This document shows positions 5,625 to 17,331 of a DNA stretch of 17,331 nt, one piece after another. A program made the translations under genes and the position numbers. The notes under the pieces were generated by a model. It was not told the DNA's origin and made no database searches. It saw only the letters and a list, made by a program, of their open reading frames with translations. Origin of the DNA: Oscillospiraceae bacterium (GTDB lineage: Bacteria; Bacillota; Clostridia; Oscillospirales; Oscillospiraceae); the NCBI GenBank assembly GCA_017378975.1, contig JAFNXT010000232.1:1-17331 (forward strand), given 5' to 3'. The first letter of the stretch is position 1. Each line of letters starts with the position of its first letter.

Positions 5625-8069
5625 ATGGTAGCAAAGATCGCGGTGTCTGCCGCAACGTTTGCCATCGATAAGCCCTATTCCTATTGGGTCCCGGTCGGAC
5701 CGGCACTTTCCCCCGGGATGCGGGTCATGGTGCCCTTCGGCCGGGGCAACCGGCATTGTGAGGGCATGGTCCTGTCGCTGGAGGAGGGGAGCCCGGAAGG
5801 GCTCAAGCCTGTGGCGCAGGTGCTGGACCCCGAGCCGGTATTGGACGATACCATGCTCCGGCTGGCGGGGTTCCTGCGGGAACGGTATTTCTGCACTCTT
5901 TACGACGCGGTGCGGGCCATGCTCCCGGCAGGGATGGGCTTCCGTGCATTGGAACGGTTCAGCCTGACGGAGGATCTGAGCTGGCAGACGGCCACGGTCC
6001 GGAAAGCCGGGGCCAAAGCGGTCCTGGAGCATTTGCAGACCTTGGGCGGACAGGCCGATGCTTCCCACCTGCGCCAGTTGGTGCCGGGAGAGGATGCCTT
6101 CCGGGAGGTCATGAGCTACCTCGTCCGGAAGGGCTGGGTCCATACCCAAATGGATCTGCGCCGCCGTACCGCCGACAAGGCGGAGCAGGTGGCGGTGCTG
6201 TGTTCCTCGGTGGAGGAGGCCATGGACTATGCCGCGGGCAGGCCCAAGTCCGCCGCCATGCAACGGGCGGTGCTGGAGCTGTTGTGCCAGTTGGGCACCG
6301 TCAGCGTCAAGGAGCTTTGCTATTTCACCGGCGCCAGTCCGGCTACGGTCCGGCGGCTCCGGGATCTGGGCTATGTGGAACTGACGGAGCGGGAGGTCCT
6401 GCGTTGTCATGAGATCCGCCCGGCACAGGTGGATACGGATCTGGTCCTCAATGAGGAGCAGGCGGAAGCCTTCCGGGGACTGCGGGCGCAGATGCACTCC
6501 GAGGTGCCGGGGACGGCGCTTTTATACGGCGTCACCGGCTCCGGTAAGACCTCGGTGTACCTGACGCTGATCCGGGACTGTCTGGAGATGGGCAGGACTG
6601 CCATGCTGTTGGTGCCGGAGATCGCCCTGACGCCCCAGCTTTTGGGGATCCTGGTGGCCCATTTCGGCGATCAGGTGGCGGTGCTCCACAGCAGTCTGCC
6701 GGCAACGGAGCGTTATGACCAGTGGAAACGGGTCCGCTCCGGGGATGCCAAGGTGGTGGTGGGCACCCGCTCGGCGGTGTTCGCCCCCTGTACGGATCCC
6801 GGTCTCATCATTCTGGATGAGGAGCAGGAACATTCTTATAAATCTGAAAATTCGCCCCGATACCATGCCCGTGAAGTGGCCATGTGGAGGGGGCTCAAGC
6901 AAAAGGCATTGGTGCTGTTGGGCTCGGCCACGCCGTCCATCGAGACCATGTACCATGCCAAAGAGGGCCATCATCGGCTCTATACCCTCCGTCAGCGATA
7001 TAACCGCCGGGCGTTGCCTCAGGTGGAGATCGTGGACATGAAGGAGGAAGTGAAGGACGGCAACGATTCCGGGTTCAGTTACCGGCTTCGGGAGGCGATC
7101 CGGGAGACGGCGGATAAGGGCAAGCAGACGATCCTGCTCCTGAACCGCCGGGGCAACAGCCGGGCGTTGGTCTGCGTGGATTGCCGACAGGCACCGGAGT
7201 GCCCAAGGTGTACCGCAAGGCTCACCTATCACAGCGCCAATGAACGGCTCATGTGCCATTACTGCGGCTTCTCCCGGCCGGTGCCGGAGCGGTGCGACTG
7301 CGGCGGCCCCCTGAAACGGGTGGGCACCGGCACCCAGAAGGCCCAGCAGGAACTGGCGGAGCTGATGCCGGATCTGACCTCGATCCGCATGGACGCGGAC
7401 ACGGTCAGCGCTGTGAACACCCACGAGAAGATCCTGGACCGGTTCAAACAGGAGAAGATCCCGGTGCTGATCGGCACCCAGATGGTGGCCAAGGGGCTGG
7501 ATATGCCTGATGTCACTTTGGTGGGCGTGCTGGACGGGGATCTGGGACTGTACACCGGGGATCATCGGGCGGCGGAGACCACCTTCAATATGCTGACACA
7601 GGTGGTGGGCCGGGCCGGACGGGGCAAGGACCCCGGTACGGCGGTGGTCCAGACGCTGGTGCCGGAGCATGAGGTGCTGAAGCTGGCGGCCCGGCAGGAT
7701 CATGAGGGCTTTTATGAGCTGGAGATCCGTCTCCGGCAGATGCAGGCACTGCCTCCCTTCGGGGATGTGGTCACTGTGACCTTCGTGGGACAGGAAGAGC
7801 CGAGGCTCCTGCGTGGTGCCGCGAAATTCCGGGACTCCCTGATCGGCTGTCTGGCACAGCCGCCCTATGGGGGGACCCCTGTCACCGTGTTGGGCCCCGC
7901 GCCCTGCCCGGTGCCGAAGATCAATTACAATCACCGTTACCGTCTGACGTTGCGGTGCCGTCTGGACAAGCCCCTGCGGGGGCTGGTGGCCCATCTGCTC
8001 CGGGAGTTCGCCCGGGACGGGGCCAACCGGGGCATCAATGTGTTCGCGGACGTGAACGGGATGGACTAA
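5625..8069 (+). CDS. priA: Primosomal protein N' (PriA helicase)
   Basis: Replication-restart 3'-5' helicase that recognises stalled forks and loads the replicative helicase. The 814-aa product has the N-terminal 3'-end-binding domain (about 1-100), a winged-helix region, and Walker A GVTGSGKT at 302-309. Walker B is DEEQEHSYK at 398-406, a frequent clostridial form of the DEEH motif. The zinc-binding insertion has cysteines 517, 520, 526, 529, 544, 547, 557 and 559, followed by helicase motifs including IGTQMVAKGLDMPDV and QVVGRAGRG. The last Cys pair is CDC rather than the usual CxxC. AAGGAGG at 5608-5614 is 10 bases before the ATG, and the gap from rpoZ is 18 bases. It is followed at 11 bases by def. 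Confidence 0.97.
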   Translation: MVAKIAVSAATFAIDKPYSYWVPVGPALSPGMRVMVPFGRGNRHCEGMVLSLEEGSPEGLKPVAQVLDPEPVLDDTMLRLAGFLRERYFCTLYDAVRAMLPAGMGFRALERFSLTEDLSWQTATVRKAGAKAVLEHLQTLGGQADASHLRQLVPGEDAFREVMSYLVRKGWVHTQMDLRRRTADKAEQVAVLCSSVEEAMDYAAGRPKSAAMQRAVLELLCQLGTVSVKELCYFTGASPATVRRLRDLGYVELTEREVLRCHEIRPAQVDTDLVLNEEQAEAFRGLRAQMHSEVPGTALLYGVTGSGKTSVYLTLIRDCLEMGRTAMLLVPEIALTPQLLGILVAHFGDQVAVLHSSLPATERYDQWKRVRSGDAKVVVGTRSAVFAPCTDPGLIILDEEQEHSYKSENSPRYHAREVAMWRGLKQKALVLLGSATPSIETMYHAKEGHHRLYTLRQRYNRRALPQVEIVDMKEEVKDGNDSGFSYRLREAIRETADKGKQTILLLNRRGNSRALVCVDCRQAPECPRCTARLTYHSANERLMCHYCGFSRPVPERCDCGGPLKRVGTGTQKAQQELAELMPDLTSIRMDADTVSAVNTHEKILDRFKQEKIPVLIGTQMVAKGLDMPDVTLVGVLDGDLGLYTGDHRAAETTFNMLTQVVGRAGRGKDPGTAVVQTLVPEHEVLKLAARQDHEGFYELEIRLRQMQALPPFGDVVTVTFVGQEEPRLLRGAAKFRDSLIGCLAQPPYGGTPVTVLGPAPCPVPKINYNHRYRLTLRCRLDKPLRGLVAHLLREFARDGANRGINVFADVNGMD

Positions 8070-8080
8070 GAGGAGGACAT

Positions 8081-8551
8081 ATGGGGATCAGAAAGATCTT
8101 GACGGATAAGGATCCGGCTCTGCATAAGGTGTGCAAGCCGGTGGAAGCCTTCGATAAGAAGCTGCACAAATTGCTGGACGATATGGCCCAGACGCTGGAG
8201 GAAGCCAACGGCGTGGGTCTGGCGGCTCCGCAGGTGGGCATTTTGCGCCGTGTGGTGATCGTGGATATCGGGGAGGAGATCCTGGAGCTGGTGAATCCCA
8301 CGCTGGTGGAGACCTCCGGGGAGCAGACCGGCGCGGAAGGATGCCTGAGCGTCCCGGGCAAGTACGGTCTGGTGACCCGGCCCAACAAGGCCAAGGTCCG
8401 GGCCCAGGACCGGGACGGCAACTGGTTCGAGGCCGAGGGCGAGGAACTGATCGCCCGGTGCTTCTGCCACGAGCTGGACCATCTGGACGGCATTTTGTAT
8501 ACCCAGGTCATGGACCGGTTCCTCACCGAGGAGGAGCTGGAAGAACTGTGA
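8081..8551 (+). CDS. def: Peptide deformylase
   Basis: Removes the formyl group from the initiator methionine of nascent proteins. The 156-aa enzyme has all three metal and catalytic motifs intact: GVGLAAPQ (44-51), EGCLS with metal ligand C88, and HELDH (130-134) with two His ligands and the catalytic Glu. The short length and compact C-terminus are typical of Firmicutes type 1-like Def. AGGAGG immediately upstream at 8071-8076 with a 4-base spacer fixes the ATG; the frame upstream lies inside priA. The partner fmt, which adds the formyl group, follows after a repeat-bearing gap of 98 bases. Confidence 0.96.
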   Translation: MGIRKILTDKDPALHKVCKPVEAFDKKLHKLLDDMAQTLEEANGVGLAAPQVGILRRVVIVDIGEEILELVNPTLVETSGEQTGAEGCLSVPGKYGLVTRPNKAKVRAQDRDGNWFEAEGEELIARCFCHELDHLDGILYTQVMDRFLTEEELEEL

Positions 8552-8553
8552 TC

Positions 8554-8630
8554 GCCCCCTTTTGGGGCAGATGTATTTCGCATTTTGTAGATGTGGGGGA
8601 TCGCCACGTCGCTTCGCTCCTCGCGAAGAC
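8554..8630 (+). repeat. Dispersed-type palindromic repeat between def and fmt
   Basis: The gap begins with a hairpin GCCCC-CTTTT-GGGGC (8554-8568) that has no following T-run. At 8597-8630 lies a sequence read as GATCGCCACGTCGCTTCGCT followed by CCTCGCGAAGAC. It contains the inverted repeat CTTCGC (8612-8617) / GCGAAG (8623-8628). From memory, the motif GCCACGTCGCTTCGCTCCTCGC is a widespread intergenic repeat in many bacterial genomes. The fmt ribosome site GGAGGGG (8638-8644) begins 7 bases after it. Confidence 0.6.
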
Positions 8631-8649
8631 AGTTGTTGGAGGGGTTTTT

Positions 8650-9555
8650 GTGAGAGTAGTATTCATGGGTACGCCGGATATTGCGGCGGTTTGTTTGAGG
8701 AAGATCATCGGTGACGGCTTCGATGTGGTGGGCGTGTACACCCAGCCGGACCGGCCCAAGGGCCGGGGGATGAAGCTGGTGGCCTCTCCTGTGAAGGAGG
8801 TGGCGATCGCCAATGACATCCCGGTGTTCCAGCCGGAGAACTTCAGGGATGAAGGAACGGTGGCTCAGCTTCGGGCATTGGAGCCGGATGTGTGCGCCGT
8901 GGTGGCTTATGGGCAAATCTTGCCCCAGAGCGTGCTGGATGTGCCTAAGATGGGCTGTATCAACATCCACGCCAGCATCCTGCCGGAGTACCGTGGCTCC
9001 GCTCCCTATCAGTGGGCGGTGCTGGACGGCAAGAAGGAGACCGGTGTCACGGCCATGTATCTGTGCCGGAAGATGGACGCCGGCGACATCATCGACGTGT
9101 CCCGGACCCCCATCGGGCCTGACGAGACGGCCGGGGAACTGCTGGACCGTCTGGCGGTGCTGGGCTCTGTACTGCTGAGCAAGACGCTGGGCCGCTTCGC
9201 ACAGGGGCCTGTGGAGGCGGTACCGCAGGATGAGGCCGCGGTCACCTATGCCCCCATGCTGGACAAGTCCCTTTGTCCCATCGACTGGACCAAGACGGCC
9301 CAGCAGGTCCATGACCATGTCCGGGGCCTGCATCCCTGGCCGGTGGCCACCACCGAGATCCAGGGCAAGCGTTTCAAGATCCATTCCACCGCTGTGGTGG
9401 AGGGCTCCGGTACGCCGGGGCAGATCCTGGGGCTGACCAAGACCGGACTGAAGATCGCCTGTGGCGAGGATGCGGTGGAGATCCGCTTCCTGCAGGCCGA
9501 AGGCGGCAAGCGGATGGCCGCGCCGGATTATTTCCGGGGACATCCGCTGGAGTGA
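8650..9555 (+). CDS. fmt: Methionyl-tRNA formyltransferase
   Basis: Formylates Met-tRNA(fMet) using 10-formyl-tetrahydrofolate, preparing it for initiation. The 301-aa protein starts MRVVFMGTPD, as in the family. It holds the folate and catalytic core INIHASILPEYRGSAPYQWA, with N105 and H107, and KMDAGD with D143 completing the catalytic triad. The smaller C-terminal tRNA-binding domain covers about 205-300. The GTG at 8650 is chosen over the ATG at 8665 because GGAGGGG ends 5 bases before it and the family begins with the residues between them. It is functionally paired with def just upstream. Confidence 0.96.
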   Translation: MRVVFMGTPDIAAVCLRKIIGDGFDVVGVYTQPDRPKGRGMKLVASPVKEVAIANDIPVFQPENFRDEGTVAQLRALEPDVCAVVAYGQILPQSVLDVPKMGCINIHASILPEYRGSAPYQWAVLDGKKETGVTAMYLCRKMDAGDIIDVSRTPIGPDETAGELLDRLAVLGSVLLSKTLGRFAQGPVEAVPQDEAAVTYAPMLDKSLCPIDWTKTAQQVHDHVRGLHPWPVATTEIQGKRFKIHSTAVVEGSGTPGQILGLTKTGLKIACGEDAVEIRFLQAEGGKRMAAPDYFRGHPLE

Positions 9556-9583
9556 CACCATACCCTGCGAGGGAGGGAAGGAT

Positions 9584-10900
9584 ATGAACGCAAGAGAGAC
9601 TGCTTTGGACGTGCTGATCGCCTGCCGGAAGCGGGCGGCATGGTCCAACGGCGTTTTGAAAGACTATATCGAGCGGGACCGGCTGGACAGACGGGACGCG
9701 GCACTGGCTACCAGACTGTGCTACGGCATCCTCCAGCACCGGGGCATGCTGGACTTCTTTTTGAAGCAACTGCTCACCGGGAAGCTGAAGGATCTGCATC
9801 CCGTGGTCCGGGACATCCTGCATATGGGCCTGTACCAGATCTATGAGCTGGACAAGGTGCCGGACAGCGCGGCGGTGAACGAATCCGTGGCGCTGGCGAA
9901 GAAATACTGCCGCTGGCAACGGGGGGCCTCGGGACTGGTGAACGCGGTCTTGCGGAACGCCGTCCGGACCAAGGGCACCCTGAAACAGCCCACCACGCTG
10001 GAGGACCGGTACAGCCATCCCAGCGCGCTGATCGGTCTGCTGGGCAACTATGTGGGCCGTGAGGCGCTGGAGCCTATGCTGGCGGCCAATAACGACACTC
10101 CGCTGACGGTGGTGCAGGTGAACACCCTGCGGACCACCACGGAAGCGCTGGTGGAGGAGCTGGCCCGGGAGGATGTGGTGGCTCTGCCCCACAGTTGGAT
10201 GCCCGACTGTCTGGTGCTGTCCAACACCGGCAACATCGAAAAGCTCCGGGCCTTCAGGGACGGTCTGTTCTATGTGCAGGATGCCGCTTCCCGGCTGGCG
10301 GTCCAGTGCGCCCAGATCCCGCAGGGGGACAAGGTCCGGGTGCTGGATTGCTGTGCCGCTCCCGGCGGCAAGACCTTCGCCGCGGCGATCGCCATGGGCG
10401 GCAAGGGCAAGATCCGTTCCGCTGACATCCACCGGCACAAGACGACCCTGATCCAGCACGGCGCCGACCGTCTGGGCCTGCACAATGTGCTGGTCCGGGA
10501 ACAGGATGCCACCGAGAACCATCCCACATGGCTTGGGAAGATGGACGTGGTGCTGTGCGACGTGCCCTGCTCCGGCTACGGTATCATCCGGAAGAAGCCG
10601 GACATCCGTTACAAGGACCCCAAGGAGATGTCCCGTCTGCCGGAGCTCCAGCTGAAGATCCTCAGCAAGCAGGCCCAGTACGTCCGTCCCGGCGGTACGG
10701 TGATCTATTCCACCTGTACGCTGGTGCGCAACGAGAACGAGGGCGTGGTGGAGGCCTTTTTGAAACATCATCCCGAATTCCATCTGGAGCCCCTGCCTCT
10801 GCCGGACAACTTCCCCCGGAACACCTCCGGCATGATCGCGCTGGTGCCCGGACAGTATGACACCGATGGTTTCTTCATCGCCAGACTACGGAGGAAATGA
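9584..10900 (+). CDS. rsmB: 16S rRNA (cytosine-967-C5)-methyltransferase RsmB
   Basis: Methylates C967 of 16S rRNA with S-adenosylmethionine. The 438-aa protein has an N-terminal NusB-like helical RNA-binding domain (about 1-135) and a C-terminal Rossmann methyltransferase. The SAM-binding CCAAPGGKT is at 256-264, motif IV is DVPCSGYG with C329, and motif VI is STCT with the nucleophile C378. Both catalytic cysteines are present. The ATG follows GGGAGGGAAG by about 3 bases, or 8 from GGGAGG; the upstream open frame lies in fmt. The stop overlaps the rlmN ATG by one base. The end FFIARLRRK is the normal family C-terminus. Confidence 0.95.
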   Translation: MNARETALDVLIACRKRAAWSNGVLKDYIERDRLDRRDAALATRLCYGILQHRGMLDFFLKQLLTGKLKDLHPVVRDILHMGLYQIYELDKVPDSAAVNESVALAKKYCRWQRGASGLVNAVLRNAVRTKGTLKQPTTLEDRYSHPSALIGLLGNYVGREALEPMLAANNDTPLTVVQVNTLRTTTEALVEELAREDVVALPHSWMPDCLVLSNTGNIEKLRAFRDGLFYVQDAASRLAVQCAQIPQGDKVRVLDCCAAPGGKTFAAAIAMGGKGKIRSADIHRHKTTLIQHGADRLGLHNVLVREQDATENHPTWLGKMDVVLCDVPCSGYGIIRKKPDIRYKDPKEMSRLPELQLKILSKQAQYVRPGGTVIYSTCTLVRNENEGVVEAFLKHHPEFHLEPLPLPDNFPRNTSGMIALVPGQYDTDGFFIARLRRK

Positions 10901-11925
10901 TGCATCTGAAGTCCATGACGCTGGCGGAGCTGACCACCCTCTTCAAGGACATGGGGGAGCCCGGCTTCCGGGCGAAACAGGTCTATACGTGGCTCCACAA
11001 GGGCGTGCGTACATATGACGGGATGACGAACCTGCCCCAGACCCTGCGCCAAAAGCTGGCGCAGGAGCATCCGATCCGTCCGCCGGAGGCGGTGCGGAAG
11101 CAGGAGTCTCAACGGGACGGTACGATCAAATATCTGTGGCAGCTCTCCGACGGCAACTGTGTGGAGACGGTGCTCATGCGCTATGAGTACGGCAACACGG
11201 TGTGCATCTCCACGGAGGTGGGGTGCCGCATGGGCTGTGCCTTCTGCGCCTCCACGCTGGGTGGTCTGGTGCGGCGGCTGGAGCCCTTCGAGATGCTCGA
11301 TCAGGTGCTCTTCACCCAGATCGATTCCGGCCTGCCGATCTCTCGGATCGTGCTCATGGGCATCGGGGAACCGCTGGACAATTTCGACAACGTGCTCCGG
11401 TTTTTGGAGCTGGTGAACAGCCCGGAGGGGATGAACATCTCCATGCGGCATATCAGCCTGTCCACCTGTGGGCTGGTGCCTAAGATCGATGCGCTGGCGG
11501 AGCGGAAGCTCCAGATCGCGTTGGCGATCTCCCTCCACGGACCCAACGACGAGATCCGGGACAAGATCATGCCGGTGAACAAAGCCTATCCTATGGATCA
11601 GCTTCTGGCGGCCTGCCGGAGATATTTCGAGGCCACCTCCCGGCGGATCCATTTCGAGTACGCCATGATCGACGGCGTCAACGACCGGGAGCAGGATGCT
11701 AGAGAGCTTCTGCGGCGGCTGAAGGGGCTTCCGGCCCATTTCAATCTGATCCCTTTGAACCATGTGGAGGAGAGCCCTCTGAAGCCCAGCAGTCGCAAGG
11801 CGGTGGCCCGGTTCCAGCAGATCCTGGAGGAGGGCGGCATCACTGCCACCGTCCGCCGGACTTTGGGCGGCGATATCGATGCTTCCTGCGGACAGCTTCG
11901 TCGGAAGTACACCAAAGGGCAGTGA
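10900..11925 (+). CDS. rlmN: Dual-specificity 23S rRNA/tRNA (adenine-C2) methyltransferase RlmN
   Basis: Radical-SAM enzyme methylating A2503 of 23S rRNA and A37 of some tRNAs. The 341-aa product has the cluster motif CRMGCAFC (C109, C113, C116), C102 and C330. The last two correspond to the pair of catalytic cysteines of E. coli RlmN (C118, C355), and GEPLDNFDNV is conserved. Two adjacent ATGs exist at 10897 and 10900. GGAGG at 10890-10894 is 5 bases from the second but only 2 from the first, so 10900 is preferred. It is not Cfr-like: it sits in the housekeeping cluster in the usual place after rsmB and has RlmN-type sequence. Confidence 0.95.
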   Translation: MHLKSMTLAELTTLFKDMGEPGFRAKQVYTWLHKGVRTYDGMTNLPQTLRQKLAQEHPIRPPEAVRKQESQRDGTIKYLWQLSDGNCVETVLMRYEYGNTVCISTEVGCRMGCAFCASTLGGLVRRLEPFEMLDQVLFTQIDSGLPISRIVLMGIGEPLDNFDNVLRFLELVNSPEGMNISMRHISLSTCGLVPKIDALAERKLQIALAISLHGPNDEIRDKIMPVNKAYPMDQLLAACRRYFEATSRRIHFEYAMIDGVNDREQDARELLRRLKGLPAHFNLIPLNHVEESPLKPSSRKAVARFQQILEEGGITATVRRTLGGDIDASCGQLRRKYTKGQ

Positions 11926-15552: not shown

Positions 15553-15560
15553 AGCCAGAG

Positions 15561-15591
15561 AAAAGAGGACCGAACGATCGGTCCTCTTTTT
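15561..15591 (+). terminator. Strong rho-independent terminator after rsgA
   Basis: A perfect 12-bp stem pairs AAAAGAGGACCG (15561-15572) with CGGTCCTCTTTT (15579-15590), with loop AACGAT, ending in a run of five T (15587-15591). It begins 8 bases after the rsgA stop and closes the housekeeping run. Confidence 0.93.
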
Positions 15592-15634
15592 GTGCGTATT
15601 ATATATGATCTCATTGATCGATGTTGATCAATTG

Positions 15635-15663
15635 TTGACAGTTGCACAAAATTATGTAAAAAT
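15635..15663 (+). promoter_or_regulatory. Candidate promoter of the DNRLRE-protein gene
   Basis: A perfect -35 TTGACA (15635-15640) is followed at 17 bases by AAAAAT (15658-15663), preceded by an extended-minus-10 type TG at 15655-15656. The -10 is only a 4/6 match. A second TTGACA at 15668-15673 has no good -10. The surrounding stretch holds repeated TGATC/GATCGATG-like words (15606-15631), a possible operator. Transcription from here would give a leader of about 210 bases. Confidence 0.4.
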
Positions 15664-15762
15664 TGTATTGACAGAGAACATAATGAGATAACGCAGTCGC
15701 ACCATGCGAATGAGTATGTTCTATGACGCGATGCGCAAGATATTTATGGATTTGGCTGGATG

Positions 15763-15853
15763 ATCGGAGGTGGGGCCGATGTGCCGTGGATGATGCATTG
15801 ACGCAGTGCTGAGATCACGACCGTATATGGACAAGAGATGCGTCATCTTGTCC
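15763..15853 (+). promoter_or_regulatory. Structured leader upstream of the DNRLRE-protein gene
   Basis: The 289 bases between the rsgA terminator and the next start codon hold no convincing gene but several inverted repeats. These are ATCGG (15763-15767) / CCGAT (15776-15780), CGTG (15785-15788) / CACG (15816-15819) enclosing GCATT (15795-15799) / AGTGC (15805-15809), and GGACAAGA (15829-15836) / TCTTGTCC (15846-15853). The last stem ends 11 bases before the ribosome site and has no T-run, so it is not a terminator. It matches no riboswitch class I can recognise. A cis-acting RNA is possible but unproven. Confidence 0.4.
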
Positions 15854-15880
15854 TCCGCTATTTTAAGGGAGGGAATGGAA

Positions 15881-17331
15881 TTGAAACGCATAAAATCTAT
15901 TTGTTCAGTTTTGATGGTCATCGTCATGATGCTGTCTTTATTTCCGGGAGATGTGTATGCTACGAACGAAGCAACAGACTGCGTATTGGACGATGAAAAA
16001 CTGTCTGTGACCGAATCTGAGGTCCTATCTGAGTTTGAGTCCGGTAATGGACCAACGGTCCTGTACGAAGATGTCTCTCGCCGAGGACGATACGAAAAGC
16101 ATTTCGTACTGTCTGACGGTTCGTATCAGGCCGTAGTATATACTGAACCCATCCATTATGCCACTGCATCAGGGTGGGAAGAGGTCGACAATACGCTTTC
16201 TCTTCAGGATGACCTTGATGGCGGTAAACGATATGTCACTGTGGACGGCCTTGCGGATGTGAGTTTCGCCAGCTCTGCTAATGATCGTTTGGTGACTGTG
16301 AAACACGATGGATATGAACTCTCGTGGAACGTTCGTGCCGTGACTTCCGGAAAGCTGACCTCCGAAATCGCAACAGCCGAGCTGATTTCTCTGGACCGAC
16401 TTGACGATGAAGACAAATCAGCTTATCTTGCGGAACGTTCTTCCTCTGCGATCCGGTATCGGGATGCCTTGGGGAAAGGGGCGGATCTGGAGTATGTCGT
16501 TTTGCCCAGTCGTGTGAAGGAGAATATCATTTTAAATAGCCAACAGGATATCGCCTCGTATGTGATCACGGTATATGTGGATGGCCTGTCCGCACGTCTG
16601 CTTAAGGACCGCAGAGTGGAATTCGTGGATCAAGATGGTGATGTCATCTTTATGATGACCTCTCCGTATATGTATGACAGTGCGGGGGAGTTGAGCGAGA
16701 ACATCTCGGTAGAGCTTAGTTCTTCTGGACGCGGTGTGTACGTCATTCGTATGACACCAGATGTCACCTGGCTTAATGACGCTTCACGTGTGTATCCGAT
16801 CACAATCGATCCTCAGGTCACCACGTCTACGGCACAGACGAACATCGTCGATAACTATGTGCTGGAGGGTGCAGGGAACCAAAATGGGAACTTGGATCGG
16901 GTGTATATCGGGAGAAAATCCGGTACGAGGGCCAGAGCGTATATCAAATTTACCAATATGCCCACGCTTCCCACGGGTGCAACGGTCACAGCCGCATCGA
17001 TGACGACGCACATCGTGGCAAATACATCTACGGGTAATACAGCGGATGCCTATATGGTCATGGGCGGGGACTGGTCTGCCAGTACGATCACTTGGGCCAA
17101 TATGCCTTCTGCCTATGGAACACTTGCTACCAGTATCAGTCACAATTCTTTGACCAGATATACTTTTTCATGTACATACGCAGTTCAGACATGGTATTCC
17201 GGCAGTTCCGTTGGGCAAAACAAAAACTATGGCATCATGCTCCGGTATCATGACGAGTCCATCGCAGACTATAACGCGGTGTATTCTGCCGACCATACGA
17301 CAGCGAGTCAGCGGCCGTCCATCGTCATCAC
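15881..17331 (+). CDS. Secreted DNRLRE-domain protein, N-terminal part (WapA/RHS-like)
   Basis: The frame stays open from the start to the right edge: 483 codons without a stop, so the gene is 3'-truncated by the window. Residues 1-27 form a signal peptide (basic KRIK start, hydrophobic core, cleavage likely after VYA). Residues 28-310 are a beta-rich region ending in YPITIDPQV, a typical junction before the next domain. Residues about 318-483 match a DNRLRE domain (DNYVLEG..., ARAYIKF, LPTGATVTAASM, WSASTITWANMPS), found in cell-wall-associated RHS proteins such as WapA. The TTG at 15881 follows GGAGG (15868-15872) by 8 bases. The in-frame ATG at 15875 is only 2 bases from it, and one at 15827 lacks a site. 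Lower GC and different codon use suggest transfer. The C-terminal function is unseen. Confidence 0.8.
   Translation, partial: MKRIKSICSVLMVIVMMLSLFPGDVYATNEATDCVLDDEKLSVTESEVLSEFESGNGPTVLYEDVSRRGRYEKHFVLSDGSYQAVVYTEPIHYATASGWEEVDNTLSLQDDLDGGKRYVTVDGLADVSFASSANDRLVTVKHDGYELSWNVRAVTSGKLTSEIATAELISLDRLDDEDKSAYLAERSSSAIRYRDALGKGADLEYVVLPSRVKENIILNSQQDIASYVITVYVDGLSARLLKDRRVEFVDQDGDVIFMMTSPYMYDSAGELSENISVELSSSGRGVYVIRMTPDVTWLNDASRVYPITIDPQVTTSTAQTNIVDNYVLEGAGNQNGNLDRVYIGRKSGTRARAYIKFTNMPTLPTGATVTAASMTTHIVANTSTGNTADAYMVMGGDWSASTITWANMPSAYGTLATSISHNSLTRYTFSCTYAVQTWYSGSSVGQNKNYGIMLRYHDESIADYNAVYSADHTTASQRPSIVI

What the first reader, a model, noticed from the sequence alone, without database searches (positions are those of the whole stretch)
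15881..17331. Start of a large secreted DNRLRE protein, possibly a WapA/RHS polymorphic toxin
A signal peptide, a beta-rich N-terminal region and a DNRLRE domain are read directly from an uninterrupted 483-codon frame that leaves the window. In Gram-positive bacteria this architecture commonly precedes YD/RHS repeats and a variable C-terminal toxin with a downstream immunity gene. Only the delivery half is visible, so the toxin and immunity part is inference. It is the best candidate here for an accessory competition system.
Basis: partly seen in the sequence, partly recalled or inferred. Interest (0 to 1): 0.7.

Follow-up and report, generated by a model that had tools for sequence, protein, structure and literature searches.

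The report
Secreted protein with swappable enzyme end
The contig ends inside a gene for a secreted gut-bacterial protein whose relatives keep the same front half but carry many different ends, among them protein- and cell-wall-cutting enzymes, usually followed by a small membrane-anchored protein that may be the antidote, which suggests a bacterial competition system different from the RHS toxin first proposed.

Summary
In detail: an open frame with a signal-peptide-like start and a DNRLRE domain (NF033679, E 2e-21) runs off the window, which is a whole contig of a 75.7%-complete metagenome-assembled genome. The WapA/RHS reading is not supported. The nearest relatives with complete genes (48-58% identity over the same front) lack YD arrays; their ends are M23, amidase, papain/C39-like, metzincin-like, caspase/CHAT-like, or of no known family, often after Big_2 and ricin-type modules. 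On a 95-row tree the window sits in a 34-row clade without an RHS protein. The broader idea, a constant front with a variable effector and an adjacent immunity gene, gains support in relatives: near-identical fronts (484 of 486 residues) carry unrelated ends, the break falling right after DNRLRE, where this contig also stops; the next gene's product looks exported in 28 of 35 non-RHS against 10 of 31 RHS relatives; and it follows the effector type, not the front. Best reading: a polymorphic, extracytoplasmic effector with a membrane-anchored antidote. The window's own effector and antidote are unseen; toxicity is inferred.

The parts
15875..17331 (+). Truncated gene for a secreted DNRLRE protein (485 codons seen; the contig ends inside the gene)
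   Evidence: Open frame; homologues; the contig is the window
15875..15961 (+). Signal-peptide-like N-terminus (residues 1-29)
   Evidence: Read from the translation; no predictor run
16052..16819 (+). Constant N-terminal region before DNRLRE (about residues 60-315), no curated domain of its own
   Evidence: Conserved in an alignment of 44 sequences; no Pfam or NCBIfam family here; weak DUF7948 hits below the cut-off in relatives
16850..17329 (+). DNRLRE / CBM96-like domain (residues 326-485); its end is the constant/variable junction seen in relatives
   Evidence: NF033679 E 2e-21; PF24517 E 1.4e-12; junction shown in relatives
15865..15873 (+). Shine-Dalgarno-like AAGGGAGGG
   Evidence: Read from the sequence
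15564..15591 (+). Inverted repeat with a T run between rsgA and this gene: possible rsgA terminator, so this gene may be a unit of its own
   Evidence: Read from the sequence; the terminator scan did not list it
15635..15663 (+). Promoter-like site TTGACA-17-AAAAAT
   Evidence: Consensus match only, 10 of 12; 3 sites found in the region on both strands against 0.9 expected in shuffles

Best explanation
The gene encodes a Sec-exported protein with a constant front half (N-terminal region plus DNRLRE/CBM96-like domain) that holds it at the cell surface or binds a glycan. The unseen part most likely continues, as in the nearest relatives, with a Big_2 module, often a ricin-type lectin module, and then one of many exchangeable C-terminal domains, most likely a peptidase or peptidoglycan hydrolase acting outside the membrane of a neighbouring cell. 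A lipoprotein or other membrane-anchored protein encoded directly downstream would protect the producer by binding its own enzyme. It would thus be a polymorphic toxin system without RHS repeats. Shown: the front half; its relatives, their exchangeable ends, and the linkage and co-variation of the exported partner gene. Inferred: the window's own C-terminus and partner, toxicity, antidote function, target.
For: Closest same-genus relatives: M23 end (G089), papain-like WCWA end (G072, motif by eye), and a ricin-lectin protein with a caspase/CHAT-like end (G057, by its intact relative P0001). Database and locus relatives: Amidase_2, Amidase_6, C39_2 and CHAT over their cut-offs in single members, M12-like metallopeptidase below its cut-off, Big_2 and ricin lectin. 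The nearest partial relatives P0122 (61%) and P0127 (63%) run from DNRLRE into Big_2. Swapping: P0010/P0012 share 484 of 486 aligned residues over residues 1-500 and then diverge; P0003/P0005 and P0008/P0011 likewise at lower identity. Next gene with signal/TM N-terminus: 28 of 35 non-RHS against 10 of 31 RHS relatives, Fisher p 1.4e-4; 28 of 30 after a post hoc drop of 5 odd rows, against 25 of 100 other next genes of the same loci. Among pairs with fronts at least 35% identical, partners are similar in 4 of 5 effector-similar and 0 of 29 effector-dissimilar pairs; at 25% or more, 8 of 13 and 3 of 285. Partner copies in tandem, and in L075 a further copy of the effector end (93 aa, 89% identical) followed by a second partner gene. 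The M23 partner is a family of 87 homologues.
Against: The window's own C-terminus and downstream gene are not in the data. 8 of 16 effector-similar pairs show no partner similarity (at least two of these eight, L066/L110 and L066/L133, probably match only in the DNRLRE tail). The M23 partner is well conserved (40-60% identity to the query in 43 aligned members), more than expected for a fast-diversifying antidote, and its domain also stands alone or beside M56-like membrane proteins. Ricin and CBM-like modules with peptidases also fit digestion of host or dietary glycoproteins. A close full-length neighbour, P0032, has a C-terminus without any Pfam hit. Pair counts are not corrected for shared ancestry. 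In L037 an end without YD repeats sits on an RHS-clade front, so the front does not strictly fix the kind of end. 10 of 31 RHS relatives also have an exported-looking next gene.
Confidence: 0.6

Rival explanations
1. It is a WapA/RHS polymorphic toxin: the missing part holds YD repeats, an Rhs core and a toxin delivered into the cytoplasm.
For: Distant relatives with the same kind of front do carry YD repeats, also in this genus; S. suis WapA combines DNRLRE, LysM, Rhs and a toxin (PMC12704120, passages); fronts and kinds of end can recombine (L037).
Against: 0 of 16 ORF rows at 33% identity or more have a YD motif; rows with YD reach 32.5% at most; 34-row clade without RHS; nearest neighbours at 50-65% identity agree in RHS versus non-RHS in 77 of 79 cases (database proteins there were capped in length, which thins out RHS); no Rhs core in the held part of G000.
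Confidence: 0.06
2. It is a secreted scavenging enzyme: lectin and CBM-like modules bind glycoproteins, the enzyme digests them, and the downstream lipoprotein is a partner or a self-protection inhibitor rather than an antidote in bacterial competition (compare SpeB with its inhibitor Spi, recalled).
For: Glycan-binding-type modules; peptidase ends; conserved M23 partner.
Against: Sharp swapping of unrelated enzymes behind near-identical fronts, M23 and amidase ends that would cut cell wall, partners that change with the effector, tandem partner copies and an orphan module are marks of effector-immunity systems.
Confidence: 0.25
3. The protein is an adhesin or structural surface protein whose C-terminus holds only binding or anchoring domains.
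For: The visible part is all binding-type; P0032, a close neighbour, has no enzyme family at its C-terminus, and the ends of L067 and L075 (not scanned with Pfam) show no motif I recognise.
Against: Many relatives end in enzyme-like domains (M23 by motif in 33 of the 105 non-RHS rows besides the window; others; not every row was scanned), and L067 and L075 too are followed by a membrane-protein gene.
Confidence: 0.09

Closest known systems
WapA / RHS polymorphic toxins of Gram-positive bacteria (e.g. S. suis WapA-CT1, PMC12704120, passages read)
   Same: Sec signal, unknown N-terminal domain, DNRLRE domain in the N-terminal part, variable C-terminus with adjacent immunity gene
   Different: No YD/Rhs part found in the window's clade; relatives there are shorter (about 640-1310 aa); ends include peptidases and wall hydrolases; next gene product mostly exported and membrane-anchored
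Polymorphic toxins with peptidase toxin domains (Zhang et al. 2012, PMC3482391, passages read)
   Different: The passages read do not describe a DNRLRE-Big_2-ricin front with lipoprotein partners; the whole text was not read
TslA-TilA, T7SS lipase and its immunity lipoprotein (PMC10730906, passages read)
   Same: Gram-positive effector acting outside the membrane, neutralised by a lipoprotein with multiple copies
   Different: Phospholipase, T7SS-secreted, reverse domain order
VgrG2b-PA0261 and Tpe1-Tpi1 metallopeptidase effector-immunity pairs (PMC6899460, passages read)
   Same: Metallopeptidase toxic outside the cytoplasm, immunity in periplasm, inner membrane or as lipoprotein, encoded beside it
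   Different: Gram-negative, T6SS-delivered
Lysostaphin / zoocin A / LytM M23 endopeptidases
   Same: M23 catalytic domain at the end of one subclass of relatives (the M23 hits in the PDB come from the part of profile A3 beyond the window)
   Different: Other binding domains; the partner lipoprotein has no Pfam match over a cut-off

Membership tests
WapA / RHS polymorphic toxin | Signal peptide and DNRLRE-type N-terminal part | tested here: met
   (signal peptide by eye)
WapA / RHS polymorphic toxin | YD repeats and Rhs core in this protein | not testable with these tools
   Contig ends before that part; no continuation found
WapA / RHS polymorphic toxin | YD repeats in the closest relatives | tested here: not met
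   0 of 16 rows at 33% identity or more; 34-row clade without RHS; regular expression, not an HMM
WapA / RHS polymorphic toxin | Rhs core anywhere in the genome | tested here: inconclusive
   0 matches of TIGR03696 in G000, but only 75.7% complete and this gene cut off; rings in 2 of 14 control genomes
Polymorphic toxin system in the broad sense | Near-identical front with unrelated C-termini (in relatives) | tested here: met
   P0010/P0012, P0003/P0005, P0008/P0011
Polymorphic toxin system in the broad sense | Adjacent partner gene that varies with the C-terminus (in relatives) | tested here: met
   relatedness not corrected; 8 of 16 effector-similar pairs without partner similarity
Polymorphic toxin system in the broad sense | Orphan effector modules and tandem immunity copies (in relatives) | tested here: met
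   Further copy of the effector end in 2 of 38 loci; partner copies flagged in 11 of 38, clear in 5 and partial in 1
Polymorphic toxin system in the broad sense | C-terminus toxic, partner protective | not testable with these tools
   Needs experiment
DNRLRE domain proteins (NF033679) | Score over the curated cut-off | tested here: met
   76.8 against 34 bits
CBM96 (PF24517) | Score over the gathering cut-off | tested here: met
   48.1 against 26 bits
CBM96 (PF24517) | Binding of alginate or another glycan | not testable with these tools
   Needs experiment

The most novel reading that the evidence does not exclude
In gut Clostridia one surface stalk (N-terminal region plus DNRLRE) serves two classes of polymorphic effectors: RHS-encased toxins for the cytoplasm with mostly non-exported immunity proteins, and a class without RHS that carries interchangeable peptidases and wall hydrolases working outside the membrane, each with its own lipoprotein antidote. 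The effector-antidote pair moves as one cassette joined at the end of DNRLRE. The window contig stops exactly at that joint, as expected if the sampled population holds the same front with different ends.
Probability: 0.45. Interest if true: 0.7.

Novelty: new variant of a known kind. Interest (0 to 1): 0.5.

Why it matters
If right, a widespread group of gut Clostridia proteins (where named in the tables seen here, only as DNRLRE domain-containing, hypothetical or murein endopeptidase) is a large store of extracellular antibacterial proteases and wall hydrolases with ready-made inhibitors, and the place where the immunity protein sits (membrane-anchored or not) could be predicted from the delivery class. 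It also shows that a DNRLRE front in a Gram-positive genome should not be read as an RHS toxin by default.

Tried and rejected
Looked for the rest of the gene in G000: last 150 bases (only itself plus eight matches of 14-20 bases), a long relative (only matches to its Big_2 stretch on two other contigs), Rhs core, and the rpe contig in case the usual rsgA-rpe order (recalled) held (rpe lies beside a proS-like and an HtrA-like gene, names recalled). First genome-contig scan with the single sequence found nothing; the alignment found 179 relatives, of which the best 80 (77 loci) were kept. Viral contigs, phages and plasmids hold only distant matches (6 viral loci, 4 phage records, 62 plasmid records of which 8 were listed; 22-30% where listed), so a phage or plasmid origin was not pursued. 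Order-wide search with the M23 partner: matches in 18 of 394 genomes; the 14 weaker ones touch only the first half or so of the model at under 30 bits and were not followed; the other four (G742, G855, G831, G673) were looked at.

The RHS label rests on a YD-type regular expression and not on an HMM; single chance matches occur (one in P0032). Rows dropped: duplicates L021-L023 and L202, contig-truncated, short or unclassified rows, and post hoc five rows (L098, L134, L141, L092, L187), whose next ORF was large or not a small separate gene; with them the count is 28 of 35. One of the two exceptions left (L065) has an in-frame stop, so its next ORF is its own tail; the gene after that looks like a lipoprotein; the other (L040) is a true exception. 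In one search all 36 proteins with the M23 family but only 40 of the others were compared. Literature: (listings of one open library); no listed title or abstract start describes this front with peptidase ends and lipoprotein partners; that is no proof of absence from print.

Full report
WHAT IS THERE. The frame is real and open to the last base. The window is all of contig C275 of a 2.02 Mb assembly in 359 contigs, 75.7% complete. NCBIfam places a DNRLRE domain at residues 326-485 (E 2e-21) and Pfam a CBM96 match over residues 322-444 (E 1.4e-12). Residues about 60-315 are conserved in relatives but have no curated family of their own. An inverted repeat with a T run follows rsgA (read by eye; the scan did not list it), so the gene may be transcribed on its own. 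The genes before it look like housekeeping genes (recalled, no call).

CLOSEST RELATIVES ARE NOT RHS PROTEINS. In the genus, 22 of 101 genomes have a match to the front (window's own included); a search of 136, all that are held, finds three at E below 1e-60 besides the window's own genome. These are G057, G072 and G089, with frames of 1012, 978 and 685 residues. G089 ends in an M23 peptidase (E 1.5e-20). G072 ends in a papain-like domain with the motif WCWA and a later GHA (by eye; no Pfam hit). G057 has ricin-lectin modules and then a domain cut by an in-frame stop; Pfam finds no enzyme in the part before the stop, but its intact database relative P0001 carries CHAT. The one named isolate close to the window among the 77 loci kept, Massiliimalia massiliensis (48%), ends in M23. 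Relatives with YD motifs exist, also in this genus, but at 32.5% identity or less: of 108 ORF rows, 64 have YD or Rhs motifs, and none of these is among the 16 rows at 33% or more (13 without duplicates). Among 88 database proteins aligned over 380 residues or more, 86 have no YD match and 2 have one, but those searches capped length.

WHAT THE ENDS ARE. Over the curated cut-off in single members: M23 (G089, L066, L071), Amidase_2 (P0022), Amidase_6 (P0128), C39_2 (L080), CHAT (P0066). Below the cut-off: CHAT in P0015, M12-type metallopeptidase in P0018 and L070, both of which carry HExxHxxG. No Pfam family at the C-terminus: P0032, P0007, P0004 and others. Not every relative was scanned.

TREE. 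On 95 rows (47 RHS, 9 M23, 37 other, the window, one truncated), the RHS label needs 8 changes against 31.7 in shuffles. The window lies in a 34-row clade (support 93, drawn open; its 32-row core is starred at 96) with no RHS row, and in a starred four-row group with P0022 (Big_2, Amidase_2), P0032 (Big_2, C-terminus without a Pfam family) and P0122 (truncated in Big_2). This was the quick tree with SH-aLRT support only. As a rough rate, nearest neighbours at 50-65% identity agree in RHS versus non-RHS in 77 of 79 cases, at 40-50% in 96 of 103; the length cap thins out RHS proteins among the database rows. G000 has no Rhs core match, which says little for a 75.7%-complete genome.

SWAPPING. 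P0010 and P0012 agree at 484 of 486 aligned residues over residues 1-500 and then part directly after the DNRLRE end; one ends in an HExxHxxG (metzincin-like) domain, the other in a papain-like WCWA one (motifs by eye). P0003/P0005 and P0008/P0011 part at the same place; P0024/P0028 share the linker too and part about 200 residues later. The window contig stops at the corresponding residue. A branch point in the assembly at a constant/variable junction would give that; this is a single case noticed after the fact and was not tested.

THE NEXT GENE. Of 38 non-RHS loci with enough flanking DNA, 35 have a next gene (start within -60 to +200 bases), and in 28 of these it has a hydrophobic signal or TM segment near its start, 23 with a lipobox pattern; of 33 RHS loci, 31 have a next gene and 10 of these have such a segment, 4 a lipobox pattern (Fisher p 1.4e-4). 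After a post hoc drop of five odd rows it is 28 of 30, against 25 of 100 next genes elsewhere in the same loci. The signal test is a simple hydropathy rule. Similar effectors go with similar partners: 9 of 21 effector-similar pairs against 7 of 574 others, 3 of the 7 being among the odd rows. With effector matches of at least 60 residues and fronts at least 35% identical, 4 of 5 effector-similar pairs share partner similarity and 0 of 29 effector-dissimilar pairs do; at fronts of 25% or more it is 8 of 13 and 3 of 285. Against this, 8 of 16 effector-similar pairs show no partner similarity (for example L070/L195, L075/L188, L027/L067), and pairs are not independent of descent. Two effector-similar pairs with fronts of only 26-27% identity (L063/L190, L065/L189) show weak partner similarity (E about 1e-3).

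PARTNERS. Ten downstream proteins gave no Pfam match over a cut-off. The M23 partner has 87 homologues; in the loci held it was found only at the two M23 loci from which it came. By listed contig length, 6 of 36 M23-type proteins and 0 of 40 chosen others share a contig with it (a proxy). Partner copies are clear in L065, L073, L075, L037 and L131 and partial in L089; L071, L072, L080, L098 and L187 were also flagged but are low-complexity, short or belong to odd rows. L075 holds a further copy of the effector end (93 aa, 89%) followed by a second partner gene; L187 also holds a further copy of its end (35%). Against a simple antidote role, the M23 partner is well conserved, and its domain also occurs alone (G742, G855) and with M56-like or sigma-factor-linked membrane proteins (G831, G673; names recalled); the lone copies could be orphan antidotes or point to another role.

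MECHANISM. Most likely: export by Sec; retention or targeting through DNRLRE and lectin modules; cleavage of envelope proteins or peptidoglycan of neighbours; self-protection by the membrane-anchored partner. All of these steps are inferred, export from a signal peptide read by eye. Known parallels for an enzyme acting outside the membrane with a membrane-anchored or periplasmic antidote are TslA-TilA (PMC10730906, passages) and VgrG2b-PA0261 / Tpe1-Tpi1 (PMC6899460, passages). Peptidase ends in polymorphic toxins are known (PMC3482391, passages). S. suis WapA shows DNRLRE at the front of a true Rhs toxin (PMC12704120, passages).

VERDICT. For the window itself the effector stays unknown. Interest is moderate because the family-level pattern is strong while the window shows only its constant half.

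Noticed in passing
L065 (G057:C36) 7485-10799: The effector gene of this relative has an in-frame stop inside its C-terminal domain; an intact relative (P0001) exists in the protein database.
   Followed up: partly
L264 4957-5589, L265 5764-6303, L266 4167-5030, L268 4711-8097: The M23-partner lipoprotein domain also occurs alone, as short tandem ORFs beside an M56/BlaR1-like membrane protein, and within a 1128-aa protein next to a sigma-factor-like gene (names recalled): orphan antidotes or a sensor domain?
   Followed up: partly
L075 14261-15031: Further copy of an effector end (93 aa, 89% identical) followed by a second copy of the partner gene, like a silent toxin-immunity cassette.
   Followed up: partly
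window 15553-15874 and L226-L241: What follows rsgA is not the same in the genomes of the genus read by eye (ribosomal-protein genes in some, a der-like gene in others, other genes elsewhere; 12 loci printed): a variable spot next to a housekeeping block.
   Followed up: partly
L037 (G099:C29) 7110-10904: An end without YD repeats, by eye like that of P0009/P0017, on a front that belongs to an RHS clade, followed by three tandem membrane-anchored genes: exchange between the RHS and non-RHS classes.
   Followed up: partly
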